This document shows positions 17,635 through 47,348 of a stretch of 64,000 nt of DNA, in pieces; the stretch's first letter is position 1, and each line of letters opens with the position of its first letter. Source of the stretch: Cafeteria roenbergensis (Eukaryota > Sar > Bigyra > Bicosoecida > Cafeteriaceae); NCBI GenBank assembly GCA_008330645.1, contig VLTN01000097.1:1-64000 (forward strand), read 5' to 3'. The translations under genes and the position numbers were made by a program. Below the pieces are notes generated by a model that was not told the DNA's origin, ran no database searches, and was given only the letters and a program-made list of their open reading frames with translations.

Positions 17635-17705
17635 GGGGCCTTAAGCTAGTGGCAGACGGTAAGATTCCAGTCCTTGCAGCACCGGTTCGATTCCGGTAGG
17701 CCTCA
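17635..17705 (+). tRNA. tRNA-like gene, anticodon reads CCA (Trp?), copy 1
   Basis: 71 nt. The 7-bp acceptor stem pairs GGGGCCT with AGGCCTC (one G-T), followed by discriminator A. The T arm is perfect (ACCGG / TTCGATT / CCGGT) and supplies a canonical B box GGTTCGATTCC. The anticodon arm pairs GTAAG with CTTGC around ATTCCAGTC, placing CCA (17667-17669) in the centre after a T and before a purine, as in tRNA-Trp. The D arm is poor: the A-box-like TAAGCTAGTGG is present but the D stem pairs weakly. There is no encoded CCA tail, as usual in eukaryotes. T5 follows at 17708-17712. It could be a genuine unusual tRNA-Trp or a tRNA-derived element. Confidence 0.65.
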
Positions 17706-17707
17706 CC

Positions 17708-17712
17708 TTTTT
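17708..17712 (+). terminator. Pol III T-run after tRNA-like copy 1
   Basis: TTTTT two bases after the discriminator base; the same spacing is found after all three copies. Confidence 0.7.
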
Positions 17713-18038
17713 GTCTCGGTTTGGGTCGCCCCATCCAACTGCCAACCGATGCCAGTCCAGCCCTGCCACGACAGGTGCGGGCCGAACTGCCAGTGCGCTC
17801 CATAGAGCGGAAGGCAAGCCGTTGTTCGGCGGCCCAAAGGTGTAAAAGCGTTGAGAGGCGGGAACGGTGGCTGCAAGGACCCCCCACCTTTTCTGTTCCC
17901 CGCCTCCCACCTTGCAAACATGCCGGACTAGCGTATAGCGCCCCGGGGCAACGCCAGGGCCGCAGCGCGGCCGCAACGGGCACATCCGCAATGGGGTTGG
18001 TACAGCTATGGTAATTTTGGCGCTGCCCAGCTAACGTA
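17713..18038. other. Spacer between tRNA-like copies 1 and 2
   Basis: This 326 bp spacer has no sequence in common with the other inter-copy spacer apart from the AT block and CGTA just before the tRNA. No gene is seen. Confidence 0.5.
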
Positions 18039-18109
18039 GGGGCCTTAAGCTAGTGGCAGACGGTAAGATTCCAGTCCTTGCAGCACCGGTTCGATTCCGG
18101 TAGGCCTCA
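18039..18109 (+). tRNA. tRNA-like gene, anticodon reads CCA (Trp?), copy 2
   Basis: Identical to copy 1 over all 71 nt; CCA lies at 18071-18073. It is preceded by CGTA and, about 20 bp further up, TAATTTT (18012-18018). T5 lies at 18112-18116. Beyond the T run copies 2 and 3 share TTTTTGCGCGATGTGT. Confidence 0.65.
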
Positions 18110-18111
18110 CC

Positions 18112-18116
18112 TTTTT
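18112..18116 (+). terminator. Pol III T-run after tRNA-like copy 2
   Basis: TTTTT two bases after the discriminator base. Confidence 0.7.
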
Positions 18117-18355
18117 GCGCGATGTGTCCAGAGATGCGAGCTTTTATGCCTCCTCTGCGTGCTGGGTTCTGGCCGAAGCGAGGTGCACGAGAGCCATCGG
18201 GAAGCAGTGTCGGCCAGTGTCGGGAAGTGAAGAAGGGACCGTGCGTCGAATCATGACGTAAACACACCGCGGGCGCCAGGACCGAGGCGTTGGACGAAGG
18301 CACCCGCAGGCTTGTCTCATCTAGAGATACAAAATTTGGCGTCTTTTGCAGCGTA

Positions 18356-18426
18356 GGGGCCTTAAGCTAGTGGCAGACGGTAAGATTCCAGTCCTTGCAG
18401 CACCGGTTCGATTCCGGTAGGCCTCA
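18356..18426 (+). tRNA. tRNA-like gene, anticodon reads CCA (Trp?), copy 3
   Basis: Identical to copies 1 and 2 over all 71 nt; CCA lies at 18388-18390. It is preceded by GCGTA and an ACAAAATTT block at 18329-18337. The T run at 18429-18433 abuts the region upstream of the next protein gene. Three identical copies 404 and 317 bp apart with different spacers suggest selection or gene conversion on the tRNA unit itself. Confidence 0.65.
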
Positions 18427-18428
18427 CC

Positions 18429-32255: not shown

Positions 32256-35200
32256 TCAAGAAACCACGTGGGCCCGCACCACTCGCCGCGACAGCACCTT
32301 GAGAGCCTTGTCGCCTTGCCGCGCCGAGGCCGTCTTCACGCCCTTGCGTTGGCTCGCTGATGCCCCTGGCTCACGACGGATGCGAGGGGGACCAGCAGCA
32401 GGCTCTCCATCGTCATAGTGTCCAGCCGACAAGGACTTCTGTTGTTCCTGCTCCCTGCCAGAGCGGGCGTGGATGGAGTACTCGGCACTGCCGCGCGCAT
32501 GCGACGGCGGAGCTGGCCCCGGGTCGCCTCCAAGCGACCCGCTGCTTTCCGAATCGCGACTGGAAGCAAACGTCACCCGCGTGCGCCCTGAGGTGTAGAC
32601 TGCCTGGGGCCTTGTGCCATCAGATCGGAGGGAGACCGAGTGCGGCGCCAGGAGCTTGGACCTGCCGGTCGAGAGCGTCCTTCCCGAGGCGCCTAGCGGT
32701 CCGAGGCGGCGTGAGCTGAGGACGTTGCTTTGCACGTCGGGGCGGGGTGACAGGAACCTGGCGCTCCTCGACCCGGATCCTGCCCCACCCAGCGCGCGGC
32801 GCATGACGGGAATCAGGAGCTGCTGCGCGTCTCGGTATGCTGCCGTGGACGTGAGCGCATAGAAGTGGGCATCGCGATCAGCCAGAGACTGCCAGGTCAT
32901 CATCGGATCGCCAGCGGTCGCGCCGCCTGCAATGTCCGGTGCATCTGTTGGCCACACGCGGCAGATGAACCTCGATTCTGATTCCGGCATTGAGGCAGGT
33001 TCGCCAAGCTTCCCAGCAGACGCCCCCTGGCTTCCAGGGCGAAGGCCAGGGGGGCTTTCCGAGCCAGCGGACTCAGTCGGCTTCTCCAGCCTCCACCCGG
33101 CCCGTGTGTGTCCTGGCGGGAGGGCCGAGCACAGTGCTGGGTCCACGGCCCTGACCAGCTCGAAGCGGGCGCGCTCCGTGAACGGCGGCCTCTGTATGGC
33201 AAAAGCAGCGTCGAAACCTGGCGCTCTCCGACTGTACGAGTGCCTGGTAAGGCACCGGGGCGACAGCAGCCAACTGACTCGGCTGCACCAATCGGGTGCC
33301 ACCCGGGACGCGCCCCAGGCCAAACAGAGAGCTGTGGCCACACTGGCCATCAGGATCCCCTCCGGTTTCGCCGCTCTGACGGCCAAGGCAGTGCCTGGCG
33401 CCTTGTCCGAGGCATCCGAGGGGAACTGGTCGCCATTTGTTAGCAGCATGAACGCCCATGCAACATGGAGAGCTACTGCGAACGGAAGAGTCCAGCCTGT
33501 GGCGCACGCTGCCAGCTGCACTCCATCGACTGGGCTCGGGCCCCGGAACCCACGGGTGAGAGCGACTCGCTCGGCAAGCAGCAAGAGCCAAAGCCCGCCA
33601 GCTCCCACAAACGGAAGCACCGGAAACGAGGCCGCGAACCCAAAGCAGGTCACGAAGATGCTGAGGGCGAACGCGAGGCGGGCGTCGATTTCAAACTGGG
33701 GCGGCATCATCGAGTCTTCCAGGTCCTGTTGTGTCGCCGGCTCGCTCGTCCTCCACTGGCGAAGAAAGACGGGGCGCAAGTGTGCCTCCGCAGCGAGCAA
33801 GACCGGCGCCATAACGCACTGGATCACGATTGTCTGGTGGATGACAACTCCGCTCGCCGCGTGCCAGTCAAGAACTGGACTGCCCGGCCCGCCGCCTGCC
33901 CACTCTCGCCTGGCCAGAACCAGCCCGCCCCACGTCGCCAACAAACGCCCAGTCACTGCAAGGGCCATTGCTACTCGGCGCCAGGTGTGCCGGGATACGA
34001 ATGCCGGCTGAAGCAGGGCACCCGCAAGCCTCGCGACGCCTGACCAAATCGCCCCCAGTCCGGCCAGCATCGCTGCCACGAGCCATGTCGACGCGTGGAG
34101 CCACCACAGCTCCTCCGCGTCAGGTTTGCAGCGAGCGGGCGCAAACAGCTCGCTGGCCTCCAAGTCCATGGTGGGGAAGTCTGTAGCTCGTTTGAAGGCC
34201 GCAATGCCCTCCACCGTGCCGAAGATTGCGATTCGCTCGCTGAGCTGCGACTGGCAGAAGCAGCGAAGCAGTGCGGTGTGCGGCACGAGCGCACCCAAGC
34301 CTGCTATGGAGCAGCACTGCTGCTCCGCGGGTGCGACCAGGTCCATGCAAAAGCCTGTGCAAGGGTGAGCAAATACGAGGCGCTGGCTGGCGGACGCGTC
34401 TTGCGGCAAGGCCGGTTCCACGACGCGCACGCTGGCTTGCATCTCCTCTTGCAGCGTCGACCCTGCTGGCGCTGGCGTTGGTGTGGGCCTCGGGTCCCTG
34501 TCCTTGCGAAGTGGCAGCAAAAACGCGTCGGGCCCGGCGAGGGCGGCAGGGAGGGCACCACTTCGTGGAGCACTCGGCCTCACGAGGCAGCCGTCCTGCC
34601 GGCGTGCCGGCTCAAGCACTTGCGATGCGTTCGTCGGGTGCCTTCCCAGCCACCCGAGCGCAGGCGAAACCTCCGCCTCAAGCTGCACAAATGTCAGTCC
34701 GCCACCGAACGCCTTGCTGCACGTTGCTGCCGCGACGCTGGTATTTCCCCTGTAGCGCACTGCCCCTGGCAGGTCGAACGGGTCTGCAAGGGCTGCCGCA
34801 GGAATGCGGACCTGGCAGGTGTCCAGGTCATGGGTCAGCGTCCCAGCAGACCTGGCGGCGGTCAAGGGCAGCATGGTCACCTCCTGCACAAGGCTGAACA
34901 GCGCCACAAGGCAGCCAAGCACCAACAGGAATCGAGCGCAAGCTCTGGGCTTCGACCCGCCGACGTGCTCCCAGAGCAAGTCCGAGGGCGCCGGAGCTTC
35001 CACGACCACAAGTGGCCAGCGCCGGGCGGCCCAGGGGCAAGGCCCGCCGCAAAGCATGCCGTCGCAGCCCTCCGCATGCATGCGACGGTGGAGTGTGTCC
35101 CCGGCCTGCCGAGCAATGTCTGGTGCCTGCATTCGCAGTCTGTGCCCCTGGCCAGCGAGACAGCACGGAATGAAGCTATTTGCGTACGCCTGAAGCACTT

Positions 35201-36962
35201 GCTGTCGAGATTCCTGGTGGTTGAACGTGACAACCGCGCAACGAGGAACGCCAGTGAAGTGCGGCTCTTCGGTCTTCCACTGCTCAATCACCGAGTCAAG
35301 AAAGTGGCCCTCCGAGACCATGGCATGGAATTTGTCCACTTGGTGCCACGGCGAAGACGGAGAGTACTTGGCAAGCTGGGACTCCACAAAGCGGCGACGC
35401 TGGAGCGTGGAGGCCATCTTCCTGCTTCGCCGGATGGCGTCGGCGACGTCGTAGCCAATCACCACGTCAGCCACCCAGCCGCCTCTCAGCCATTCTCGCC
35501 CACTGCTGGCGGTGCAGCTGACCGGCTGCAGCTGCTTTGCTGGGCTTGGCGAGCCGCCGCAGGAGCTGGAGCCGAAAGCAGCGCCGACAGCCCCGGGGAG
35601 CTGGGATGGCCGCACAGTTGCGGCCGATCTGGAGCCGCACGGCTCGGACTTGCGCTCCAGGCCCCCCAGCTCATTGAAGTGTTCGGCAACCGACACTTCT
35701 GTGGCAGAGGGCGGCAGGTTTGAAACCAAGATGCTCCAGTCACCGCTGGTGCTCATCGAAGCCGCGTGGCGAAGCGCCTGGCGCTGCTGGGCAACGAACA
35801 CCTGGTGCATGATCACCACGGCCAGCAGCACGGCCAGGGCATCAAGCGTGGCCACCGCAACAGAAAGGTTTCGCGCACCCACAGCAACAGAGCTGCCAAG
35901 GAGCGCCTCGGGCGGAGCCGCGGCCGGAGATGCGAGCTTCCACGTCCGGAGCAGGGCAAACGGCGGCCCCAGGTTCACCAGCGACGCACCCAAGAAGCCC
36001 GCCGAGTCGCGAAGCAGAGGCGGGACTCCGGAGCCAAGCAGCGACATCACAGTCGCTGGGAGGAGCACAGCGCCCAGAGCTGCCAAGGCGCCGCCCATAA
36101 TGAGAAGCACATTGAGGTAGAGAGCCACGGCAGGGCCAAAGTGAGCCCCCAGCTGGTCAGTCGTCGACGAAATGGGGGAGCCGGCCCCTTGCCGAAACAG
36201 TTGAGCCTTGGCCCGAACCCTTGCCCCAGACGTATTGGGAGGAAGCCACGGCATTGCTGCCATTGACGTGGCCATGGCGCGTCTGCCTGCAAACGCGGCA
36301 GGAGCCGAGGCTCGCTCGCCACTCGAGGTCTGAGGCTCCGCGTCGTGCCACGGCGAGACGCCCCGCCCAGCTTGCGTGTCCGACACGGAGATGACACCCT
36401 CCACTGACTGCGATCCCGCTGCCAAGCCATCGACCCGGACCTCGCGCCGAGGGCGTGATGCGGCGCTGGCGCTGCGGGGCCTTGCAGACGCAGCCGGTGC
36501 AGACGCAGCCGGTGCAGACGCAGCCGGTGCAGACGCCCTTGACGCAATCGACGCCGCAGACCCAACTGCACCAGCTCCGTACGCTGCGGCCGAACTTGGC
36601 CGCTCGCCGGTTTGCTGCTCGCTGGCAACAGCAAAAAATTCGTCGGCAGTCAGAAACATTGGCGGTGCGGGCGCCGCATAGCCCGCCCCCAGCGGCTCTG
36701 GAGCTTTGATGGTGCCTTTCTGGGCTTGGGCCAGCCTCTTTCTTCGGGATGGGGCCTGTGGTGGCCCAGCGCCGTCGCTTGTCAGCTTTGACATTGCCGA
36801 GGCTGGCCTGCGGTTTCCAGGACCGCGCAGCCCAGCCGGCCGCCCGCTCGCCGACCTGCCTCCGCGCCAGCCCGCAGGAGGCGTAGCATTTCTCCCGGGC
36901 CGCATGGGAGCGGGGCTTGGGTGCACCAGCGTACAAAAAGCAATCGTCCGGTTGCGTCCCAT
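32256..36962 (-). CDS. OSCA/TMEM63-type (DUF221) membrane channel, 1,568 aa
   Basis: Predicted mechanosensitive, hyperosmolality-gated cation channel of the plasma or an internal membrane. Single exon. Residues 1-270 are low complexity (ASAPAASAPA repeats). Membrane helices begin near residue 284 (AVALYLNVLLIMGGALAALG) and 380 (LDALAVLLAVVIMHQVFVA). The cytosolic RRM-like loop follows: WSILVSNLPPSATEVSVAEH (~416), then VPRCAVVTFNHQESRQQVL. The family hallmark PAPSDLLWEHVGG stands at ~654, just before the main transmembrane block. The later part includes PPQFEIDARLAFALSIFVTC and further helices to ~1190. A disordered tail of nearly 380 residues contains Arg/Ser-rich segments. The protein is about twice the usual family length, mostly from the two tails and an extracellular loop of ~230 residues (700-930). 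Start ATG at 36962; Met20 (MRPGRNATPP) is an alternative. Confidence 0.8.
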   Translation of the reverse strand: MGRNRTIAFCTLVHPSPAPMRPGRNATPPAGWRGGRSASGRPAGLRGPGNRRPASAMSKLTSDGAGPPQAPSRRKRLAQAQKGTIKAPEPLGAGYAAPAPPMFLTADEFFAVASEQQTGERPSSAAAYGAGAVGSAASIASRASAPAASAPAASAPAASARPRSASAASRPRREVRVDGLAAGSQSVEGVISVSDTQAGRGVSPWHDAEPQTSSGERASAPAAFAGRRAMATSMAAMPWLPPNTSGARVRAKAQLFRQGAGSPISSTTDQLGAHFGPAVALYLNVLLIMGGALAALGAVLLPATVMSLLGSGVPPLLRDSAGFLGASLVNLGPPFALLRTWKLASPAAAPPEALLGSSVAVGARNLSVAVATLDALAVLLAVVIMHQVFVAQQRQALRHAASMSTSGDWSILVSNLPPSATEVSVAEHFNELGGLERKSEPCGSRSAATVRPSQLPGAVGAAFGSSSCGGSPSPAKQLQPVSCTASSGREWLRGGWVADVVIGYDVADAIRRSRKMASTLQRRRFVESQLAKYSPSSPWHQVDKFHAMVSEGHFLDSVIEQWKTEEPHFTGVPRCAVVTFNHQESRQQVLQAYANSFIPCCLAGQGHRLRMQAPDIARQAGDTLHRRMHAEGCDGMLCGGPCPWAARRWPLVVVEAPAPSDLLWEHVGGSKPRACARFLLVLGCLVALFSLVQEVTMLPLTAARSAGTLTHDLDTCQVRIPAAALADPFDLPGAVRYRGNTSVAAATCSKAFGGGLTFVQLEAEVSPALGWLGRHPTNASQVLEPARRQDGCLVRPSAPRSGALPAALAGPDAFLLPLRKDRDPRPTPTPAPAGSTLQEEMQASVRVVEPALPQDASASQRLVFAHPCTGFCMDLVAPAEQQCCSIAGLGALVPHTALLRCFCQSQLSERIAIFGTVEGIAAFKRATDFPTMDLEASELFAPARCKPDAEELWWLHASTWLVAAMLAGLGAIWSGVARLAGALLQPAFVSRHTWRRVAMALAVTGRLLATWGGLVLARREWAGGGPGSPVLDWHAASGVVIHQTIVIQCVMAPVLLAAEAHLRPVFLRQWRTSEPATQQDLEDSMMPPQFEIDARLAFALSIFVTCFGFAASFPVLPFVGAGGLWLLLLAERVALTRGFRGPSPVDGVQLAACATGWTLPFAVALHVAWAFMLLTNGDQFPSDASDKAPGTALAVRAAKPEGILMASVATALCLAWGASRVAPDWCSRVSWLLSPRCLTRHSYSRRAPGFDAAFAIQRPPFTERARFELVRAVDPALCSALPPGHTRAGWRLEKPTESAGSESPPGLRPGSQGASAGKLGEPASMPESESRFICRVWPTDAPDIAGGATAGDPMMTWQSLADRDAHFYALTSTAAYRDAQQLLIPVMRRALGGAGSGSRSARFLSPRPDVQSNVLSSRRLGPLGASGRTLSTGRSKLLAPHSVSLRSDGTRPQAVYTSGRTRVTFASSRDSESSGSLGGDPGPAPPSHARGSAEYSIHARSGREQEQQKSLSAGHYDDGEPAAGPPRIRREPGASASQRKGVKTASARQGDKALKVLSRRVVRAHVVS
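36487..36535. repeat. 15-bp tandem repeat (ASAPA codons)
   Basis: Three near-identical copies of GCAGACGCAGCCGGT in the N-terminal linker of the OSCA-type gene. Confidence 0.85.
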
Positions 36963-37187: not shown

Positions 37188-40100
37188 TCATGCCTTGTTC
37201 AGTGCCTTGACCTGGGCTGCGTATTGGAGCCGGCGCTGCTGGGTTGTCTGGCGACGGGTTCTTTCCAATGCCTCGTGGCGCTGCCGGCCCCCGACCCCGC
37301 GAGGTCCCGCTTGCGCCACTGCTGCATCAGCAGACGACACGACAGCCTTGTTGCGAGGCTGGAAGCCGGACACTCCCCGTTCCCGAGACGGGGCTCCACG
37401 CTTCACAGACGGGGTCCCTGCAGGGCTCTGGTGGCTGCCGGCCGAGAAGTTGGATGCTTGCGACGGCACTCGCGCATACGCCGCAGCGTCAGGAACAAGA
37501 CCAACTGCTCGGGTGGACAGCCGCCTGGTCCGTGCCGAACCGGAGCGGTCTGCTGGCGCAACGCTCGAGGACGAGTGCCGGACCGTCGGCCCAGCGAGTG
37601 CAATGTTTCCTGCGGGGGCCATGCACGGCGGGATCCACATGGCCAGACGACGGGCGGCCGTGCAGACCCTCCCGGCGGTCGAGTGCGAGGGGTCACGTCG
37701 GGAGCCGAACACGCCAGCACCTGCCTCACTGGCGCCTGGCGGAAACGGCGCCAGGGAGGGTCCTTCGGAGCCGGTTCGATTGGTAGACACCGCGGCGGAA
37801 AGCCCCTGAGCTGATGGTTGCCCGGCCGCCCCGATGGCGCTGTGGGCCGTGTCTTGCGTCCCGTCTTGGGGCACGGGAGCCGCTGCGGCTGTTGCCATAG
37901 TCGCGGCCACAGTTGAGACCCCCAACGCGCGCACGAGGCGAGACTGAAGCTGGCGCAGCTCGCCGTGCAAGCGCCGCGACTCGGCGAGCAGGCGCGCGGC
38001 CTCGGCAGACTTGCCGGCCACAGAGCCGGTGACAAGGGCAAGCTGGTACGCAACAGCAGACGCTGCTCCTGGCATGACAGCCTGTGCTCCTGGCTCAGAG
38101 GCCCGGCTGCCAGACGCACCCCCCCCTGCATCAGCTCCAGTTCCGGCCGCTGCCGCCGTACCCGCAGCAGTCGCAGTCGAAGCCTGCGCGGCTCCAACCG
38201 CCGGGTCGATGCTGCTGCGGGCGTCGCCCGCTCGGGACCCTCCCCGCGACAGAGGTCCCGGACTGAAACCGACCCTGTAGGTGTCGAGGGCTTCGGCGAG
38301 ACAGCGCCTTGCCATGCGAACGTCGCCCTGGTCGCTGCTGTGTAGGCCCATCGCCACCAGCACGCTGGCCGCAGCAGCCGCGTGCCTGGAGCCGGAGTGC
38401 GCTGCATTGAAGAGCATGCGCGCGCCCATCAGCTGCTGCCTGGCACGGGCCACCTGGCCGGTGGCTGCGAGCGCAAGCCCAGCAGCCTTGCGCGAACAGG
38501 CAAGGGCAAGGTTCAGACGCAAAACGTCGGCCACCCTCCAAACGGAGCGGTGCCTGCCCCTGCGCAACTCAAGGGCCGCCTCCGGGTGCCAATCCACGCG
38601 CACTCCGAAGAGCCGCAGGCTCGCTGTGGCCACGTCCAGGGCCTGGCCGGGGTCCATTCCCAGCTCGAGCATGGCCGACGAAAGCGTCGCGCCCGCCAGC
38701 GCGGCGTGGTGAAGCCCCTCTCGGCAGCAGGCGATGAAGCGCTCGTCCAGCATGGGCAGGTGCCGTTCCGCGCGAGCACCGCTGCTGGAGCCAAGAGGGG
38801 CGGGGCCATCGGCGGCCGCCTCGCTGTCGGCAGGCGCGCCGCCCTTGGCGCCGTTGCCCGTTCGCCGCAAGAGAGCCGCGCGCTGGTCCTCCGCAGTGAC
38901 GCAAAGCTCCGTGAGCGCAGCCGCCATGTCGAGCACGCACAGCACGTGGTGCACCGTGGCTCGCGTGAGCGTGGCAGCGTGGCGCCTTGAGGCCGCAGTG
39001 TCCACAGCCAAGCAGGCTTGAACAAACTCGGCCGAGGCGTGAAAGTGGACGCAGGCGCGGAGAAGCAGCTCCAGCCGCAGCGCGCGGGTCCGGGGGTACG
39101 CGCTGGGGATGCAGGCGGGGTTGAGCTGCGCAGCGGCAAGGCAGCGCGCAAGCTGCCGCGCGGACGTCTGCCTGTCGAGCCGCAGCGACACGTACGCAGC
39201 TGTAGGAGGCAGGTGGCCGTGTCCGTGCCCGTAGGCAGGCCCGCTCGGCAGGGCAGAGCCTGCAGCCTCCGCGGTGCTCCTCCCCGGCGCAGGGGGCAGG
39301 CCCGTGGCTCCGGCGAAGGCGTCGAGGGTTCCGGCCTCCAGATAGGGCAGGCCGTCCGACAGAGAAGCCACGTCGGCGCGGGACGCCAGGAGCCACATGA
39401 GCGGGAGGGAGGGGGGAGTCGTATTGTACGGCAGCTGCGGCGGAGCCACGTGGCGGTGCAGCACGGACGAGGACACAGACGAAGGGCTTGGCGTGCGCCC
39501 GCGCCTGCTGCTGCTGCTGCTGCCTGCAGGGACGACGCTGGTGGAAGGCTCCCTGCTCCCCGGCGCGGTGTTGCCGGCGCCGGCGCCGCTGCGCGTCGGG
39601 CCGGAGCGCTGGCGCGCTGAGACGCGACTGTTGCGGGCAGATGCCACGGACGATGTCTTCTGCGCTGCAGCGTGGGCCGTGGCACGATTGCGAGACTGGC
39701 GGCCGCCTCGGTCCGCACCGCCGCCGAAGCCTGGCAGCGTGCCGGCGCCAGCCACCCGCACGGGTGAGCCACCAGGTCCGGCGTTGCCGCTCGCCTGCTT
39801 GGACGATCGCAAGCGGGTGCTGCGCCTGGCATCAGCGCTCCGCGCGCTCAGAGGCGCGGCCAACAGGCTCCCCTGCGCTCTGCTGGCGAGCGACGTCGCG
39901 CCCCCAGAGGCCTTGCTGAGAGAGGGAGAGTCGGTGCCGGCCTGCGACGCTCCGCCGAGGACACCGGGCTGCTTGGAGAGGCGCCGAGGACGGGGCAGAA
40001 GCGACCCGGCGGCCGATGCGTCCGAAACCGTGTGCCGGCGACCCCCGGACGCCGACAGCCTCCCTGGCGAAGGTGGGGGTTGCGGGGCTTGGCCCTGGCG

Positions 40101-43100
40101 CATCCACTTGCCGGCCGCGCCAGTCGCGCGGGCAGGGGAGCGCCCGGCAGAGGACCGGCTTCCGGTCGGGCTACCGTGTGACGCGGGGGCGCTGGGCGGC
40201 GAGGCCGTCGCTGGCATGCTGTTTGAGGCGCGCAGCCGAAGGGAGTCGCTTGCGCGGAGCGTGGAGCTGCTCAGCGCCGAGGAGACGGCGTGGCCGGCGA
40301 CCGGAGTGCGCTGCGCATCTTGCCGCTGGCCAGCGCTGCGAGACAGAGTCAGCGCCGCTGGCACGGCCGCAGGAGGACTACCTCGAGCCGGCGAGTCGAC
40401 GGGAACCGCGGCCACGCGGCTGCCACACGGGCTGGGCGGCCCGGTCTCAGACCCCTCAGCAGCTTGCAGCTCGGCTGGCTGCGCCGCCCCGTCGCTGCCG
40501 GAGCTGCGAGGCTCGAGGGAGCCTGCCTCACTCTCTGACGCCTCGTCGATGGGAGGGCTGTCCCCAAGGCTGCGCCGGGAGGGGCTGCTGCCGCCCGCAG
40601 CACCGTTGGCGCTTTGTTCGACTGCCCAGCGCTCCTGGTGCCCGTCAATCGCAAGCTCGACGAGGGGCTTTCCGCCGCCAGGGCAGGCCAGCGGCGACCT
40701 CGGCGCCAGCGTGCTGCACTCCTCCGTGTGGGCCGTCGCCTGAGTTTCGGCGTCGTCAGTGCAGCTCCCCGCCGACGCCTCCCGGCCGAGTGACAGCGCG
40801 CCGAGGTCCGCGAACCCGGCCTCGTGAGCCGTCTCGACCTCTCGAAGAATGGCCTCAAGCGCGTTGCCAAAGAGGGGGAACGTGTCCACAACAAGCCGGA
40901 CAGACGAAAGCCCCTGCTTCCGGGAGAGGAGCCGAGCAATGCCGCCGCGAGCCGAGCCGGAGGCCTCGTGAGCGCCGCCCGCACCTCTGTCCCCGCCGCC
41001 CGTGCCACGAGTCTGGATGCTGCCTTCGTCGAACTGGCCGAGCGCGATGTCCTGAGGCCCGGCCCCGCCGGCGGGCCCCCGGGTGCCATGCGGGGCGTTG
41101 CGCCTGGCCTCCGCCCCGAGCCTCTCGCGAACCCGCCGCTGTGCCGTGCGCCGCGCTCGGGCGGCAGCCGCCTCAGCCTCAGCGGCCGCCAGTCGGGCCG
41201 CTGCCTCCTGCTCGGCGTGCGCCCCTCCGACGTGGTCAACGGCGCCCTCTTGCCAAGAGCGCCCTGTGGCTGCGGCAGGGGCTGTCCCTCCACCCAGGCT
41301 GGTGCACCCGGCAGCGAGTCCAAGCCCGAAGCCCGGAACCCCGCCCGCGCCCGCTGCCCCGCAACCGGCTGCACCCGTGCCAGCGCCGGAGCCACTCACG
41401 AGCTTCAAGCGAGTGAGCGACTCCTCAACAGCCTCGGAGCCAACCACCCACAGGGCCCAGCAGTCGAGCGCAGCTGCCAACGGAGAACGCCCTGACACGG
41501 TCCGGCGACGCACAGCCGACGCGTCGACCAGGGCGCGCAGTCTGCCCGACCAGTCCTTCCGGGCAGCCGTGCGGCCCAGCACGCTCGCGAACACGCCCTC
41601 CCGCGTCACGGCCCACCTGGCGCTGATGGCCACGCTGGTGGCGTCGAGCGAGGCCGCAGACCCGGCAACTGCCGAGGCGTTGGCGGGGAAGCGCCCCCAG
41701 CTTGTGTCCATCAAGGAGGAGATCGCCGTGCCGCCGTCGAGCGACGCTACCACGGACCCATGCATCGCCGATGACCCGCCCGGCTGCCCGGTGTGCGAGC
41801 CCCCCATGCTGGGGGTGGGGCGTCGCGCCCGCACTGAGCGGTGGCGGTGGTGGGGAAGCGGCGGAGGCGACAGGCCAGAGGCGAACGCCGCGCCGGGACG
41901 GCAGTAGCTGTTGAGCGACATGCGATCCGCGGCGTCGCATGCGCTCGCGCCGTCCTCCCAGGCCGTGGCGTTGCTGTCCGCGCCGCTGAAGCCGGCATCT
42001 GTCCCGCCCTCCAGGTCGTCGTCGCCATCGGAGCGCTGGCCCTCGGTGGCGGTCAGCTCGTCCTTGTCCGTGATGCCGTGGCCGGCCGTTCCCCGCCCTC
42101 CAACGGGGATGCCCGCCGCCCGAAGTGCGTCCGCGTTGCGATCGGCCATCTCCTGGACCGCGTCGGCGGGGGCCGAGGCAAACACGGGCCCGTGTGCGCC
42201 CCAGATTATGTCCAGGTCCGTGTGTGACAGGCCGGCCGGAAACATTGAAATCAGCGTCAGCAAGGCAAGAGCGCGGCCGTCGGTCGCTGCAACAGAGGCC
42301 ACCAGCAGCTCCATCGACAGGAGGGCGGCTCGCCCGGCGGGGGCCATCTCGGCAACGCGGCGATCCGCTGCTCCTGTGTCGCCAGCTGAGCCGCTGGCGG
42401 CGGCGCCGCCTCCTCCAGCGCCCGTGCCCAACGCCGCCTCGGCGCCTCGCCCCCCGGGAGGCGGGTGGCTGAGCAGGACCGGCAACGAGGCCCTGGTAGG
42501 GTCATCGCCGCCCGCCGTCAGCAGCGCCGGCGCGTGGCCGCTAGCCATGGCAAGGCTCACCAGCGTCGCGTCCGGAACGGGGGGCTCGTCGTCGCTGTCG
42601 CTTGGGCAGGCACGGTGGCCGTCGCTCCGCACCGCACCTGGTTGGTGCTCGCCGCCTGCTCCGCTGCTGGCATGCGTGGAGCCGGCAGCTGCGGCAGCGT
42701 GGCCGAGGCGCCCAGCCGAGGACCCACCATCCCGTGGGGCCGCCGCGTGGGCGCTGGACTCACCAGGGCCCTCTCCCTCGCCCCCCCCGGCTGCGCCCCA
42801 CACGTCGAGGCTTGCAGCTGGCCAGAGGTGGGAGCGAGCTCCGGCTCTGCCGCTTCCCGAGTGCCTCGCCGGGGCCGTGAGAGCCTGGAGCTCGTCGAGC
42901 GACTGCTGGCCCGATCCGACCATCCGCGCGGCGAGGCACACCGCCTGCGGGTGGCCGCACAGCTGCCGTAGCACGGGATGCAGCGCGAGCGCTGCAAGGC
43001 GCGCTGCCCTGGCTGCCGACGCAGGCGTCTGGAAGGCCGTGACCGCAGGGGAAGGGGCCCCCTTCGCCGCAGCTGCCTGCAGCGCCAGCCTGGCCTTGTG

Positions 43101-46100
43101 CACCCTCTGCGCGGGGATGCTGCGGAGGACACGCTCGCCCGCAGGGCTCGCCTGCACAAGGAGCTCTGCCGCATGGACGTCTGGAAGCGGCGGCAGCACG
43201 TAGTCCTTCTCCGGGCCGCAGACGCTGCCGCCCAGGCCGAGAGGGGAGCGGGACGTTGCAAGGACGGAAACCCCTGGTGCGCGTTCCAACAGGCGCGAGA
43301 GCAGCGCCCTCAGGCGGCGGGGGAGGTACATGAGGGGCTCGTCGACGTCGTCGAGCACAAGTAGGACCTGCCGCTGGTAGAGCGCGGCGACGATGCGGCG
43401 GCGGAGCACGCGGCTGAGGTCACGAGCGCCACGGGTGCGCTCTGCCTCGGCGTCGCTCCCGCTGGCAAGCGGGCCTGTGGCCAGGCCGGCGCCCAGCCCA
43501 TGGGGCAGGCCGGGCCGGCGCCGGGGCACGCTGGGCGTCGCCATGGAAACGGAGGACCCCATGCTCACCACGCTGCCCTCGAGGGGGGCCAAGAAGGCGG
43601 ACGAGCCGCCGCAGAGCGAGCGGATGTCCATGTCAGACTGCCTCGCTGCGGCGGCAGCAGCTGCAGCGGAGGAAGCGCCCGCGCCGAAAAGAGCGCGCTC
43701 TGCGCCCGGAGCAGCCATCGCTGCCGCAGCGCCCGGGGAGCTGGGGCGGACTCCTCGCGTTGGCCATCCTGGGGCCGCGGCCGCCAGCTCCGGCGAACAG
43801 GCTGAGAAGCCGAAGCCGCTGCCTTGGCCGCCGCCGCCGCCGCCACCTCCAGCCGGGTGGCCCCGAGCGGCTTGCCTTGCTGCCGCCTCGGTGCGATGAC
43901 GGGTGCGCGGGCTGGGCCGGGACGGAGCGGTGTCGGCGCGCTCGAGCCGCGGAGGGGTGGCTGTGAAGTGCGCCATGCCCGAGGGAGACGCAGAACGGTC
44001 TGGGGCTCCCGGGGAAGGCGGGGTGCGTGGCTGAGCGTCCCTGTCGTCGGCGCCGGCCGCCGCTTCCTCCTCCTCTTCCTCCTCCCCCTCCCCCTCACTC
44101 GCCAAGCCCCGCGCCGTGGCCGACTTCCCCGCCCGGCGATTCGATTGAATGTCGCGCCCCAGGCCTGGCGAGCCTCCGGTGTGCAGCGCAAACGTGTCTC
44201 CCGCCGAAGGGGACGGCGAGTGCGTTGCAGCAAACTCCAGCGCGGTGGTCGCGGGCGTGGCACCGCTGGCAGTGCCGGGCGAGGGCGCAGGCAGCACGAG
44301 GCAGCCTCTCAGCTCGCCGGGGCCCGATGCTGACAGGGACGGCGGGCGGCCACGGCTGAGCATGGAGCTGCTGATGCCCCTCTGCAAGCTGGGCACGCCG
44401 GCCCCCCCGTCGGCGTCGGAGGTGCCAGTGCCTGCGCCCGCGTGGTGTGGACCAGCGCCGGGGCCAGCGCCAGCGCCGGGGCCTGAGGAGTGACCCACAC
44501 CGCTGCCGCTGCCGCCGCTGCTACTGCTCTGCGCTGCGTGGACGGCAAGCGTTGCACTGCCAGCGCTGCCTGCGCTGGCCCCTGCCGTGCCCGCCATCGA
44601 GCCGCCCCGCCGGCGCCGGGGCCTGCGCAACACCTCCGACTCTCCGCCCCCTGCCGCAACGATGCCTGCCCACAGCGCCTCCTGCAGCCCCAGCCACGAG
44701 CGCACGCTCCGCAGCTTCACCATGATCACCCCGTCTCGGAAATTTCCGGGAACTGCATGCCTCGGGATGAGGAACTGCGACACTGCCAGCGCGACGGCCG
44801 ATTTGCCAACCCCGGGCGAGCCTCGCAAGCAGGTGACCCGGGCCTTGCGAACTGTTCCAACCACCGCAAAGATGTCGGAGACGCGCCCGACAAGGCCCCA
44901 CGGAGGGCGGGGCAGGCGCCGAAACTTGGCCAGCAGCGTCACGTCCAGGCTGCCTGCAACAGGGGCGAGCCGACGACTGCGGGCGAGGAACGAATGCGAG
45001 GGGTCTGCGCTGGCCCCCGCAAAGCCAAAGCCTGGGGCGCAGCCCGTCGTCTCGCTGCCGCTGCGATCGGTGCTGGGGGCGGCGTGGAAGGCCCCAGCTC
45101 TGGGCAAGTCGCCGACAATGGCGCCCCGCGCTCGGAGCACCTGGTTGGTGCGCAGGAACCCCTCCTCACCGCCAGGCGGCCCCGACAGCGAAGGGACGCC
45201 CGACAGCGGCGCCGGCGGCGATCCAAAGCCGCCGCCGCTGCTGCTCGGCGCGAACCACGAGTCCCGAGTGCGCAGCTTGCCTGGCACCGCGCCCCCAGCC
45301 GTGTCAGGGGAGTCAGGGACAGAGGGCGCCTCCGGCGACAGGAAGAACACGGGGCTGTGCGCCCCGGCAGGGGCCTGCTCCATCAGGTGCGAGTCAAGCG
45401 CCGTCGCAACGACCACGCTCCCAGACGGTGCCCCCCTGTGTGCGCCGGTGCCGCTGCTGCTGCCGCTGGCGCCGGCCGGCCACATCATGATGTAGTCCTC
45501 CGCAGCGGGGGCGGGGTCCGCCCCTGGCCGAACCGACGCGCCCAGCTGCTGCTGCCCCGAGGCCGCAGCTGCGTGCACGAGCGCGTGCTTCTCCGCGTCG
45601 GCCCGCGCCCGGGCACTCGCACGGGTGAAGGATGCCGCCGCGGTTTCGCCCGCGGTGAGGGCCTCGTAAAGGGTGCGAACGAACCTGATGGCAACGCGAT
45701 CGGCAATGCGCGCGCTCTGCCGAACAGCGATGACCAGCGGGGCCACGCCGGCCGCCACCAGGGCGCGGCCCACCGCCTCGGAGCTGCATGACGCCACCAC
45801 CGCCAGGTCGCAGGAGAAGGATCGGGTCCCGGCAGCGGGCCTGCCTGTTGAGTCGGAGCCGCTGCCGGCAGCGCCACCCCTGCACGTCCGGGGCAACGGG
45901 AGCATTGCCGCCAGCGTGTCCGCGAAGACGGTGTGGCCCTCGCCCGTGGGGCCCTCGAGGAGCAAGAAGCCGCGGCGGGCCCCACCGCGGGAGTGGGCGA
46001 CCTCCCCGCCGTGGCCCGTGATGTGCAGCACCCGGGCCCCGAAGCCGCGGCGGAGTCCCCCGGCCCTCCCTGCGGCCATGCTGTGCGGGCGAGACGACGA

Positions 46101-46646
46101 GTCTGAAGGGCCGCGGGACGCGTGCCGCGGGGCGGGCAGCAGCGCGGCCACCATGCCGTCGAGCGTGCCCGGCAGAGCCTTGAGCACGATGGGGCGGCCG
46201 ACGCTGTCGGCGGCAGCCACGATGGCAGCGCGCTCCTCTGCCTGCTCCAGCCTGTCCACAGGCAGCAGCTGGACGGAGGAGGTGCCTGGGATGGGCTTGC
46301 GCACAACCAGCGGGGCGGCCTCCACAAAGAGCACGTCGACCTCTCGCGGCTGTGGCGGCTCCGGAAGCGCCGCCGAGGCATGCGGCCGCTCCGGCGGGGG
46401 CGACGCCCCCACGGTGTGGGGCTCTGCGGGCTCAGTGGTGTCCCCTGTCCCAGGGGACTTCTCGTCGTTCGACGCCAGCCGCCTCGGCGGTGGCGGCGGC
46501 TGCAATGGGATGGGCTTTTCTTCGCCTGGGGCAGGGGCTGGGGCAGCCTTGGACGCCCTCATAAGCGCCTGCAACTCCTTGATCCGCGACACATCTGCAG
46601 GGTTGGCCGGGTCAAGGGTGAGGAACTCGGCCAGCAAGGAGTCCAT
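37188..46646 (-). CDS. Giant CHAT - NB-ARC - TPR protein (NLR-like STAND ATPase with caspase-like protease), 3,152 aa
   Basis: One uninterrupted frame of 9.46 kb from ATG 46646 (MDSLLAEFLTLDPANPADV). CHAT domain, residues ~105-365: catalytic His212 in VLHITGHGGEVA and Cys287 in LAVVASCSSEAVGRAL, followed by VIAVRQSARIADRVAIRF, typical of the separase/caspase-like CHAT family. NB-ARC: Walker A at 609-616 (LRGSPGVGKSAVALAV), Walker B/kinase-2 near 1095 (RQVLLVLDDVDEP), RNBS-B-like VSVLATSRSPLG, and the GLPL-type LCGHPQAVCLAARMV near 1227. A ~400-residue Gly/Ser/Pro-rich insert (~675-1075) lies between Walker A and B. A winged-helix-like stretch follows (~1440-1480, LALLTLISMFPAGLSHTDLD). After a long disordered middle, helical TPR-like repeats lie at ~2510-2790, e.g. 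ALACSRKAAGLALAATGQVA, ARQQLMGARMLFNAAHSGSR and ARRCLAEALDTYRVG. By analogy with NLR/STAND proteins the TPR part would sense, NB-ARC oligomerise and CHAT cleave a target. The function is inferred only from domain order. Confidence 0.85.
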   Translation of the reverse strand: MDSLLAEFLTLDPANPADVSRIKELQALMRASKAAPAPAPGEEKPIPLQPPPPPRRLASNDEKSPGTGDTTEPAEPHTVGASPPPERPHASAALPEPPQPREVDVLFVEAAPLVVRKPIPGTSSVQLLPVDRLEQAEERAAIVAAADSVGRPIVLKALPGTLDGMVAALLPAPRHASRGPSDSSSRPHSMAAGRAGGLRRGFGARVLHITGHGGEVAHSRGGARRGFLLLEGPTGEGHTVFADTLAAMLPLPRTCRGGAAGSGSDSTGRPAAGTRSFSCDLAVVASCSSEAVGRALVAAGVAPLVIAVRQSARIADRVAIRFVRTLYEALTAGETAAASFTRASARARADAEKHALVHAAAASGQQQLGASVRPGADPAPAAEDYIMMWPAGASGSSSGTGAHRGAPSGSVVVATALDSHLMEQAPAGAHSPVFFLSPEAPSVPDSPDTAGGAVPGKLRTRDSWFAPSSSGGGFGSPPAPLSGVPSLSGPPGGEEGFLRTNQVLRARGAIVGDLPRAGAFHAAPSTDRSGSETTGCAPGFGFAGASADPSHSFLARSRRLAPVAGSLDVTLLAKFRRLPRPPWGLVGRVSDIFAVVGTVRKARVTCLRGSPGVGKSAVALAVSQFLIPRHAVPGNFRDGVIMVKLRSVRSWLGLQEALWAGIVAAGGGESEVLRRPRRRRGGSMAGTAGASAGSAGSATLAVHAAQSSSSGGSGSGVGHSSGPGAGAGPGAGPHHAGAGTGTSDADGGAGVPSLQRGISSSMLSRGRPPSLSASGPGELRGCLVLPAPSPGTASGATPATTALEFAATHSPSPSAGDTFALHTGGSPGLGRDIQSNRRAGKSATARGLASEGEGEEEEEEEAAAGADDRDAQPRTPPSPGAPDRSASPSGMAHFTATPPRLERADTAPSRPSPRTRHRTEAAARQAARGHPAGGGGGGGGQGSGFGFSACSPELAAAAPGWPTRGVRPSSPGAAAAMAAPGAERALFGAGASSAAAAAAAARQSDMDIRSLCGGSSAFLAPLEGSVVSMGSSVSMATPSVPRRRPGLPHGLGAGLATGPLASGSDAEAERTRGARDLSRVLRRRIVAALYQRQVLLVLDDVDEPLMYLPRRLRALLSRLLERAPGVSVLATSRSPLGLGGSVCGPEKDYVLPPLPDVHAAELLVQASPAGERVLRSIPAQRVHKARLALQAAAAKGAPSPAVTAFQTPASAARAARLAALALHPVLRQLCGHPQAVCLAARMVGSGQQSLDELQALTAPARHSGSGRAGARSHLWPAASLDVWGAAGGGEGEGPGESSAHAAAPRDGGSSAGRLGHAAAAAGSTHASSGAGGEHQPGAVRSDGHRACPSDSDDEPPVPDATLVSLAMASGHAPALLTAGGDDPTRASLPVLLSHPPPGGRGAEAALGTGAGGGGAAASGSAGDTGAADRRVAEMAPAGRAALLSMELLVASVAATDGRALALLTLISMFPAGLSHTDLDIIWGAHGPVFASAPADAVQEMADRNADALRAAGIPVGGRGTAGHGITDKDELTATEGQRSDGDDDLEGGTDAGFSGADSNATAWEDGASACDAADRMSLNSYCRPGAAFASGLSPPPLPHHRHRSVRARRPTPSMGGSHTGQPGGSSAMHGSVVASLDGGTAISSLMDTSWGRFPANASAVAGSAASLDATSVAISARWAVTREGVFASVLGRTAARKDWSGRLRALVDASAVRRRTVSGRSPLAAALDCWALWVVGSEAVEESLTRLKLVSGSGAGTGAAGCGAAGAGGVPGFGLGLAAGCTSLGGGTAPAAATGRSWQEGAVDHVGGAHAEQEAAARLAAAEAEAAAARARRTAQRRVRERLGAEARRNAPHGTRGPAGGAGPQDIALGQFDEGSIQTRGTGGGDRGAGGAHEASGSARGGIARLLSRKQGLSSVRLVVDTFPLFGNALEAILREVETAHEAGFADLGALSLGREASAGSCTDDAETQATAHTEECSTLAPRSPLACPGGGKPLVELAIDGHQERWAVEQSANGAAGGSSPSRRSLGDSPPIDEASESEAGSLEPRSSGSDGAAQPAELQAAEGSETGPPSPCGSRVAAVPVDSPARGSPPAAVPAALTLSRSAGQRQDAQRTPVAGHAVSSALSSSTLRASDSLRLRASNSMPATASPPSAPASHGSPTGSRSSAGRSPARATGAAGKWMRQGQAPQPPPSPGRLSASGGRRHTVSDASAAGSLLPRPRRLSKQPGVLGGASQAGTDSPSLSKASGGATSLASRAQGSLLAAPLSARSADARRSTRLRSSKQASGNAGPGGSPVRVAGAGTLPGFGGGADRGGRQSRNRATAHAAAQKTSSVASARNSRVSARQRSGPTRSGAGAGNTAPGSREPSTSVVPAGSSSSSRRGRTPSPSSVSSSVLHRHVAPPQLPYNTTPPSLPLMWLLASRADVASLSDGLPYLEAGTLDAFAGATGLPPAPGRSTAEAAGSALPSGPAYGHGHGHLPPTAAYVSLRLDRQTSARQLARCLAAAQLNPACIPSAYPRTRALRLELLLRACVHFHASAEFVQACLAVDTAASRRHAATLTRATVHHVLCVLDMAAALTELCVTAEDQRAALLRRTGNGAKGGAPADSEAAADGPAPLGSSSGARAERHLPMLDERFIACCREGLHHAALAGATLSSAMLELGMDPGQALDVATASLRLFGVRVDWHPEAALELRRGRHRSVWRVADVLRLNLALACSRKAAGLALAATGQVARARQQLMGARMLFNAAHSGSRHAAAAASVLVAMGLHSSDQGDVRMARRCLAEALDTYRVGFSPGPLSRGGSRAGDARSSIDPAVGAAQASTATAAGTAAAAGTGADAGGGASGSRASEPGAQAVMPGAASAVAYQLALVTGSVAGKSAEAARLLAESRRLHGELRQLQSRLVRALGVSTVAATMATAAAAPVPQDGTQDTAHSAIGAAGQPSAQGLSAAVSTNRTGSEGPSLAPFPPGASEAGAGVFGSRRDPSHSTAGRVCTAARRLAMWIPPCMAPAGNIALAGPTVRHSSSSVAPADRSGSARTRRLSTRAVGLVPDAAAYARVPSQASNFSAGSHQSPAGTPSVKRGAPSRERGVSGFQPRNKAVVSSADAAVAQAGPRGVGGRQRHEALERTRRQTTQQRRLQYAAQVKALNKA

Positions 46647-47348
46647 GGTAGCGGCTGCTCGCGCTGCGTCGCTGGCGGGCGAGTCCTCGGTCCCTCGCCG
46701 CGAAGGCCTCGCCGCAGTCCTGGGAGAACGAGACGAATGCCACCGCCCTTCGGCGGGGAAGTAGGCCGCCTCCTGTGACGGGGCGGCCGTGCTGGGCAAG
46801 TTTCGAAATCTCTGGCGTGGTTGGGGCAACCGGCTGCAGAGCCAAAACTCGAGCTCGGTGTGCACGCAGCGGCGCGAGCACACAAGCGCAGTTCGCGTGG
46901 GGCGACTGGGGTCCGCACTTGTTCAACGTTGAAACGCTGCAGAAGCGAGTGGCGCAGTGGCGGCGGCAAGCTCGGCTGGACCACGGTTGCTCCCGGCTGC
47001 CAACGGCGACAGACATGGCCGCAGACATGCCGCGTGGCACAGTCATCGGCGCCATGATCGACCGGTTTCGGTGAGGTTTTGATGGGCCATCGTCGCTTTC
47101 GTTGCCGAGCGCGGCGGGGCTGCCGTGAGCTGGGCAGCGACAGAGGGCGTGTTCAAAACTTGTGGCCCGAGCCTCTTGCGCGCGAACCGCCTTGTGCATG
47201 CCCTTCCCGCACACGCAGCAATGCCCCTGCCCGGAGCCCAAGCCAAAGGCGAGCCTTGCGTTCAGGCGAAGGGCGCGGGGGGGCGTCCAAGTCGTTCTGG
47301 TGGGCCGCGCGCGGTGCTGAGGCCCGGCTGCGCGTGGACGGCACAGCC
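46647..47348. promoter_or_regulatory. Divergent 5' region between the CHAT/NB-ARC gene and the RS/acidic gene
   Basis: 702 bp. Both flanking frames stay open into it (minus to 46883, plus from 47079), so either start could lie further out. GC is a little lower around 46900-47100. No core promoter motif is recognised. Confidence 0.4.

What the first reader, a model, noticed from the sequence alone, without database searches (positions are those of the whole stretch)
37188..46646. CHAT - NB-ARC - TPR giant: an NLR-like sensor with a caspase-like protease in a unicellular eukaryote
Seen: a single 3,152-codon frame with a CHAT domain (His212 in HITGHGG, Cys287 in VASCSSE), NB-ARC Walker A (GSPGVGKS), kinase-2 (LLVLDDVDE), a GLPL-type motif (LCGHPQAV) and C-terminal TPR-like helices. 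Known: CHAT proteases and STAND NTPases with repeat sensors form immune and cell-death systems in bacteria, and NB-ARC proteins do so in plants and animals. Inference: this is a regulated protease, possibly for antiviral defence or programmed cell death in a protist. Gene composition matches its neighbours, so it is not a recent transfer.
Basis: partly seen in the sequence, partly recalled or inferred. Interest (0 to 1): 0.9.

Follow-up and report, generated by a model that had tools for sequence, protein, structure and literature searches.

The report
Caspase-like immune-receptor-type protein in a flagellate
A marine single-celled flagellate, most likely Cafeteria, carries a giant protein that joins a caspase-like protease to an ATP-driven switch, built like proteins tied to defensive cell death in fungi and bacteria; what it senses and cuts is still unknown.

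Summary
The frame is real: minus strand, 46646 to 37188, 3,152 codons; the longest open run in 100 simulated windows was 1,051. It contains a CHAT (caspase-clan) protease domain with both catalytic residues (32.6 bits, cut-off 24) and a STAND switch domain (P-loop, Walker B, sensor, GxP) split by a roughly 390-residue low-complexity insert. NACHT passes its cut-off by 0.8 bits; NB-ARC fails. The C-terminus looks helical, but TPRs stay below cut-off.

Assembly size, contig number and window GC match Cafeteria burkhardae BVI, a giant-virus and virophage host. Five CHAT loci were found; four pair CHAT with a STAND domain, one of them degenerate. Bacteria carry collinear CHAT-NB-ARC-TPR proteins and fungal NLRs with CHAT are published, so this is a new variant of a known kind.

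Most likely mechanism: a ligand- and ATP-gated, oligomerising protease that starts a defence or death response by cleaving an unknown substrate. Architecture is well supported; function is inferred. No gasdermin or Peptidase_C14 match was found in the genome, so substrate and pathway remain open.

The parts
37188..46646 (-). whole reading frame, 3,152 codons from ATG (open upstream to GTG at 46883)
   Evidence: length against simulation
45591..46313 (-). CHAT protease domain (P0001 residues 191-431)
   Evidence: PF12770 32.6 bits, cut-off 24; hhalign to bacterial CHATs 96.7%; profile of the five paralogues to solved CHAT 8tl0_A E 9e-12
46011..46013 (-). catalytic His codon (GHG motif, P0001 His291)
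   Evidence: (G/A)HG motif found at 5 of 5 CHAT loci
45786..45788 (-). catalytic Cys codon (P0001 Cys366)
   Evidence: invariant in 5 of 5 paralogues and in all 11 rows of A5
44697..44912 (-). N-terminal half of STAND nucleotide-binding domain (from PRPPWGLVGR on)
   Evidence: hhalign to bacterial STAND domains 96.7%, E 4e-10; shuffles at most 1.3%
44799..44822 (-). P-loop / Walker A GSPGVGKS
   Evidence: modelled strand-loop-helix, block pLDDT 90-91
43464..44633 (-). about 390-residue low-complexity insert splitting the nucleotide-binding domain
   Evidence: composition; nearly all pLDDT below 50; low-complexity inserts between Walker A and Walker B also in C32 and C69
42891..43397 (-). C-terminal half of nucleotide-binding domain: Walker B LLVLDDVDE (43338-43364), sensor LATSRSPL (43239-43262), GxP-like LCGHPQAV (42939-42962)
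   Evidence: NACHT 27.5 bits, cut-off 26.7; hhalign 92.1%, E 6e-7
42174..42353 (-). winged-helix/ARC2-like motif (LISMFPAGLSH)
   Evidence: BLASTP to the same place in bacterial L030, 13 of 33 columns identical, E 7e-4 for this one comparison
38229..39206 (-). C-terminal helical region, putative sensor; TPR_2-like stretch at 38283-38366
   Evidence: TPR_2 16.6 bits, below cut-off 27; all-helical low-confidence model

Best explanation
A CHAT-STAND receptor-protease: sensor, ATP switch and caspase-like effector in one chain. Shown by sequence: CHAT domain with both catalytic residues, STAND nucleotide-binding domain with Walker A, Walker B, sensor and GxP motifs, in the order found in bacterial CHAT-NB-ARC-TPR proteins, and a paralogue family in the same genome. 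Inferred: at rest the C-terminal helical region holds the switch closed with ADP. A ligand (perhaps of a virus, a bacterial prey or parasite, or a damage signal) opens it, ATP binding drives oligomerisation, the clustered CHAT domains become active and cleave a partner, and that cleavage starts a defence or cell-death response. The long disordered linkers and the insert inside the switch would be flexible tethers or regulatory (phosphorylation or cleavage) segments.
For: CHAT over its cut-off on the excised domain. (G/A)HG and (S/A)C motifs at 5 of 5 CHAT loci found. The paralogue profile finds solved CHAT 8tl0 at E 9e-12 with the His and Cys motifs aligned; PMC11417357 names it SAVED-CHAT (passages). 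Three stretches (CHAT, P-loop half, Walker B-GxP half) align to bacterial CHAT-STANDs far above shuffles. Collinear bacterial proteins: L030, L031 and L034 pass the Pfam cut-offs for CHAT and NB-ARC (3 of 3) and L030 and L034 for TPR_12; L018 passes CHAT. Model: alpha/beta CHAT domain with His111 and Cys186 (model numbers) right after strands 104-110 and 180-185; the 10-residue blocks holding His, Cys, Walker A and Walker B average 74, 91, 90-91 and 90. Published parallels: fungal NLRs with CHAT, and a TPR-bearing CHAT protease that activates a gasdermin (PMC10197012, PMC12881547, passages); a CHAT-encoding allele of a fungal incompatibility gene (PMC11138114, passages).
Against: No result here tests function, expression or activity. 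TPR and NB-ARC models stay below cut-off for the window protein. The whole-protein scan does not list CHAT. No gasdermin (PF04598) match in the genome. No PADLOC match at E <= 0.01 to the protein nor to its two nearest large frames. The composite model has no Foldseek match at E <= 0.001.
Confidence: 0.55

Rival explanations
1. A regulated protease with a housekeeping job (cell cycle, feeding or developmental control), not a defence receptor; CHAT and STAND modules also serve non-immune regulation in bacteria (recalled).
For: Only five CHAT loci found, the other four 24-30% identical to the window copy; window genes with a nameable Pfam family are ordinary cellular ones; no partner executor found.
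Against: In the passages read, CHAT with NLR or STAND modules in fungi and bacteria is discussed as conflict or cell-death machinery; the genome has a separate separase (C24, 87.5 bits), so this is not the cell-cycle caspase-clan protease.
Confidence: 0.22
2. A self/non-self recognition (allorecognition or mating) device, as some fungal NLRs and the CHAT-encoding hetB allele are.
For: A CHAT-encoding allele is an incompatibility gene in Aspergillus fumigatus (passages).
Against: Allorecognition by cell fusion is not known to me in Cafeteria (recalled, not searched).
Confidence: 0.08
3. A pseudo-protease scaffold: CHAT fold and switch kept, but signalling by assembly rather than by cleavage.
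For: The CHAT domain of the window protein is divergent (23-29% identity to the ten other rows) and carries its own inserts; one paralogue (C19) has lost the P-loop lysine, so decay occurs in the family.
Against: Both catalytic residues are kept at 5 of 5 loci.
Confidence: 0.1
4. A gene-model artefact: the frame runs through introns, so the insert and other low-complexity stretches, or even the CHAT-to-switch link, are not in the mature protein.
For: Average 1.67-1.89 introns per gene in this species (passage); the insert has weak codon periodicity (GC by position 0.73/0.76/0.78); two other paralogues seem to have an intron inside the CHAT domain (inferred).
Against: The frame is open throughout; the CHAT-then-switch order recurs in 4 of 5 paralogues and in bacteria without introns; the domain stretches keep stronger coding periodicity.
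Confidence: 0.05

Closest known systems
Bacterial CHAT-NB-ARC-TPR proteins (L030, L031, L034; also L018, Anaerolinea MAG contig JACSRL010000595.1)
   Same: Same order: CHAT, linker, GR-type box (VGR, SGR in L034), P-loop, Walker B, sensor, GxP; winged-helix-like motif in L030; L030, L031 and L034 pass CHAT and NB-ARC cut-offs, L030 and L034 TPR_12
   Different: Bacterial frames are 698-1,300 codons (some cut by the end of the DNA) and compact; the window protein is 3,152 aa with a split nucleotide-binding domain, NB-ARC below cut-off and no confirmed repeats
Fungal NLRs with a CHAT protease (PMC10197012, PMC12881547, passages)
   Same: CHAT effector on an NLR-type switch in a eukaryote
   Different: Some fungal ones sit beside a gasdermin gene; no gasdermin match here. 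No fungal sequence was compared directly
SAVED-CHAT (PDB 8tl0; named in PMC11417357, passages)
   Same: CHAT domain; paralogue-profile match E 9e-12
   Different: Gated through a SAVED domain by a nucleotide messenger (partly recalled), not through a STAND switch
Craspase TPR-CHAT (Csx29)
   Same: Caspase-like CHAT protease switched on by a sensing event (PMC9729208, PMC10028731: abstract openings in the listing)
   Different: Sensing is done by a CRISPR RNA effector; no nucleotide switch in the chain (recalled)
Animal and plant NLRs (NACHT or NB-ARC)
   Same: STAND switch motifs; weak Foldseek similarity to a plant NLR resistosome, 6j5t, E 0.033
   Different: The caspase, where there is one, is a separate protein (recalled); NB-ARC model below cut-off here

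Membership tests
CHAT (PF12770) | Profile match over the curated cut-off | tested here: met
   32.6 bits on the excised domain, cut-off 24; 32.8 in genome search. Not listed in the whole-protein scan
CHAT (PF12770) | Catalytic His (GHG) and Cys (SAC-type) at the right places | tested here: met
   Aligned in A1 and A5 and to solved 8tl0 through the paralogue profile
CHAT (PF12770) | Caspase-like fold with His and Cys side by side | tested here: inconclusive
   alpha/beta order and residue positions fit; distance not measured; the one caspase-clan entry among the 50 Foldseek rows shown is metacaspase 9, E 0.17
CHAT (PF12770) | Proteolytic activity | not testable with these tools
   needs a bench assay
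STAND NTPases (broad) | P-loop, Walker B, sensor and GxP motifs in order, aligning to STAND domains | tested here: met
   NACHT 27.5 bits, cut-off 26.7
NB-ARC (PF00931) | Profile match over the curated cut-off | tested here: not met
   14.8 bits, cut-off 23.5; no match in the genome at E <= 0.001. Its bacterial relatives L030, L031 and L034 do pass
NLR (STAND switch plus repeat sensor) | C-terminal repeats (TPR, LRR, WD40, ANK) | tested here: inconclusive
   TPR_2 16.6 bits, cut-off 27; low-confidence helical model. Paralogue C69 has LRRs over cut-off, but N-terminal to CHAT
Fungal-type CHAT-gasdermin pair | Gasdermin gene in the genome | tested here: not met
   PF04598: 0 matches at E <= 1 in the genome; divergent or intron-split gasdermins could be missed
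Separase (PF03568) | Peptidase_C50 match | tested here: not met
   only match in the genome at E <= 0.1 is elsewhere, C24, 87.5 bits

The most novel reading that the evidence does not exclude
In this giant-virus host, whose genome shows no Peptidase_C14 (metacaspase/caspase) match, a small family of CHAT-STAND proteins with differing flanking modules (helical/TPR-like, LRR, perhaps SH2 and kelch) is the organism's caspase-type immune and suicide system: one-chain inflammasomes that stop infection by viruses such as CroV. The switch domain split by a disordered insert would be a lineage-specific regulatory device.
Probability: 0.2. Interest if true: 0.9.

Novelty: new variant of a known kind. 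Interest (0 to 1): 0.6.

Why it matters
The antiviral defence systems of single-celled eukaryotes are called unknown, with virophages one possible mechanism (PMC10945749, significance statement, seen in the listing and passages). [quoted passage not shown] its many virophage copies may explain that on their own. A caspase-like protease wired to an NLR-type switch in this very host would be a concrete, testable candidate for cell-autonomous defence or suicide, and would link the bacterial and fungal CHAT pathways to a third, distant lineage.

Tried and rejected
Separase: rejected, a separate Peptidase_C50 gene exists at C24. The three other NACHT matches in the genome are, by reading the frames, a dynein-like frame (C68), an AAA frame (C48) and an NPHP3/TEP1-like giant (C2); none is among the five CHAT loci. 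Viral origin: no relative in IMG/VR with the C32 CHAT or with L018 CHAT-STAND as single-protein queries; the window protein itself was not used as a query there. More paralogues: searches with C32 CHAT and with L018 gave no locus beyond the five, except a weak one in C31 at E 0.078 that I dropped. Phylogeny: 11 sequences, two of them partial, 191 columns kept (columns with fewer than 8 letters dropped); two supports of 96, the other six 48-79; the Cafeteria copies do not come out as one clade and the origin of the family is not resolved. TPR by a home-made motif and HMM: only three training units, no hit, no information. Fold comparison: 592 matches at E <= 10, none at E <= 0.001; the 50 rows shown are mostly AAA+/ORC/RFC-type ATPases, with a plant NLR resistosome at rank 4 and Arabidopsis metacaspase 9 at rank 44; inconclusive, most of the model being disordered. 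I did not search with the C-terminal model because of its low confidence. Neighbours against PADLOC: 5 of the 13 window frames scanned by Pfam were tried; only the DEAD-box helicase matches (24 families, its generic helicase part) and one frame weakly (E 0.009); I read neither as defence.

Full report
WHAT IS THERE. The finding lies on the minus strand: ATG at 46646, stop ending at 37188, 3,152 codons, open upstream to GTG at 46883 (3,231 aa, P0001). In 100 simulated 64-kb sequences with the base-to-base frequencies of window 36-48 kb, the longest stop-free run averaged 697 codons and never passed 1,051.

WHOSE GENOME. The window lies in a 36,303,456-base, 167-contig assembly; window GC is 0.65-0.74 per 2 kb (genome-wide GC was not measured). 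The published Cafeteria roenbergensis (now burkhardae) strain BVI assembly has 36,327,047 bases, 170 contigs and 70.1% GC (PMC6972860, passages). I take the organism to be C. burkhardae BVI; this is a match of statistics, not of sequence. [quoted passage not shown]

THE PROTEASE DOMAIN. On the excised domain PF12770 scores 32.6 bits (cut-off 24). A whole-protein scan did not list it, nor did it for paralogue C32, although the genome search scores C32 at 38.6 bits. Very biased composition is the likely reason (inference). The genome search scored 5 of 5 candidates as CHAT, on contigs C32, C69, C97 (the window), C19 and C10 (a lower bound). The catalytic (G/A)HG and (S/A)C motifs are present at 5 of 5 loci; at C19 and C10 the His motif is in a different frame just upstream, which I read as a preceding exon. 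A profile of the five finds one convincing solved CHAT, PDB 8tl0, at E 9e-12, which PMC11417357 names as SAVED-CHAT.

THE SWITCH DOMAIN. GSPGVGKS, LLVLDDVDE, LATSRSPL and LCGHPQAV stand in STAND order, but about 390 low-complexity residues lie between the first two. NACHT reaches 27.5 bits (cut-off 26.7); NB-ARC only 14.8 (cut-off 23.5). Against six bacterial STAND domains the P-loop half gives hhalign 96.7% (E 4e-10) and the Walker B-GxP half 92.1% (E 6e-7); 40 shuffles of each never passed 1.3%, and a scan of the whole protein in 150-residue windows passed 90% only over these places. A winged-helix-like motif with FPAGL follows at residue 1544. C32 and C69 have intact P-loops and low-complexity inserts between Walker A and Walker B; C19 aligns but has lost the P-loop lysine; no switch was seen in the C10 frame.

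THE C-TERMINUS. Residues 2560-2885 are hydrophobic enough to fold and modelled as helices, but the best TPR model scores 16.6 bits against a cut-off of 27, and the single-sequence AlphaFold2 model is poor (pLDDT 44). The sensor is therefore unproven.

STRUCTURE. AlphaFold2 on residues 181-1345 with 11 aligned sequences gives mean pLDDT 52.5, because 642 of 1,165 residues, mostly linker and insert, are below 50. CHAT strands 104-110 and 180-185 end right before His111 and Cys186 (model numbers), and Walker A and Walker B sit at their strands; the 10-residue blocks holding them average 74, 91, 90-91 and 90. The CHAT model is broken by weak stretches (blocks of 34-46 at residues 71-100 and 42-43 at 151-170). 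Foldseek against PDB found no match at E <= 0.001 among 592; the 50 rows shown are mainly AAA+-type ATPases, with a plant NLR resistosome (6j5t) at rank 4 and metacaspase 9 at rank 44. This is compatible with the assignment but does not prove it.

RELATIVES. Its frame has CHAT at 47 bits and STAND-type ATPase matches; TPR-like helices after them are by eye only, Pfam listed none and the frame runs off the contig. A sample of 301 genomes from the phylum of L018's genome (Chloroflexota, the name recalled) gave 8 with a match at E <= 1e-10 (at most 5 candidates scored a genome), three of them, one being L018's own genome, over nearly the whole CHAT-STAND query. Of the bacterial frames L030, L031 and L034, 3 of 3 pass the Pfam cut-offs for CHAT and NB-ARC and 2 of 3 for TPR_12 (L031 is cut off by the end of the locus). 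The window protein aligns collinearly with them. So its switch descends from, or shares ancestry with, NB-ARC-type switches even though it fails that model itself (inference). No relative turned up in IMG/VR with two related queries. A small tree does not resolve whether the Cafeteria genes are one clade.

FAMILY IN THE GENOME. C69 is a 6,890-codon open frame with LRRs over cut-off, then CHAT, then the switch. C19 ends in an SH2-like stretch and C10 in a kelch-like one, both below cut-off. The genome shows no Peptidase_C14 match at E <= 0.01 (the C32 frame gives a sub-cut-off 11.9 bits through its CHAT domain) and no gasdermin match; the same kind of search did find separase, so it can find a caspase-clan gene here, though divergent or intron-split genes can be missed.

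SURROUNDINGS. Of 13 other window frames scanned, picked by length from the list, six pass a Pfam cut-off: DEAD-box helicase, SUV3 C-terminus, acyl-CoA dehydrogenase, protein kinase, EH-domain and ankyrin proteins. The frame 226 bp downstream on the same strand looks like a multi-helix membrane protein, without a Pfam family over cut-off. PADLOC, tried on five frames, gives only generic helicase matches and one weak hit. Nothing marks a defence cluster.

WHAT IT DOES. By architecture it is a STAND-gated CHAT protease. In fungi, dozens of NLR or NLR-like proteins carry CHAT, some gasdermin genes sit near CHAT genes, and a TPR-bearing CHAT protease activates a gasdermin (PMC10197012, PMC12881547, passages). 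In Aspergillus a CHAT-encoding allele controls incompatibility (PMC11138114, passages). By analogy the Cafeteria protein would be activated by oligomerisation and cleave a partner to trigger defence or death. Every functional step is inference.

NOVELTY. CHAT on a STAND switch is found in bacteria and published for fungi, so this is not categorically new. In the listings and passages I saw no paper reported it in Cafeteria or another stramenopile; these show only the top of each result list. A survey of 67 protist species for cell-death genes has no mention of CHAT or Cafeteria in its main text (PMC7539657). The split switch domain, the very long disordered linkers and the paralogue set make it a new variant of a known kind.

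Noticed in passing
G000 contig C69:92651-113320 (L008, L012, L013): A 6,890-codon open frame with leucine-rich repeats, then CHAT, then a STAND switch at its C-terminal end: a second, larger CHAT-STAND protein.
   Followed up: partly
whole genome G000: No Peptidase_C14 (caspase/metacaspase) match at E <= 0.01, although separase is found; if real, unusual for a protist (recalled expectation).
   Followed up: partly
L009 (C19), P0003: CHAT-STAND paralogue whose P-loop lacks the lysine, with an SH2-like C-terminus (11.9 bits, below cut-off): a possible non-hydrolysing partner.
   Followed up: partly
window 32256-36962, minus strand: Apparent multi-helix membrane protein with a weak RRM-like stretch, 226 bp downstream of the CHAT gene on the same strand; reminds me of OSCA/TMEM63 channels by eye only.
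   Followed up: partly
window 17635-18428, plus strand: Three tRNA-Trp (CCA) genes within 800 bases.
   Followed up: no
G000:C2:1115110-1115631 (L014): NACHT domain at 42.5 bits in a 4,658-codon frame resembling NPHP3/TEP1-type proteins by eye: another STAND giant of this genome.
   Followed up: no
G001 (Anaerolinea MAG holding L018): 15 CHAT matches in one bacterial genome, in several architectures among the five loci read.
   Followed up: no
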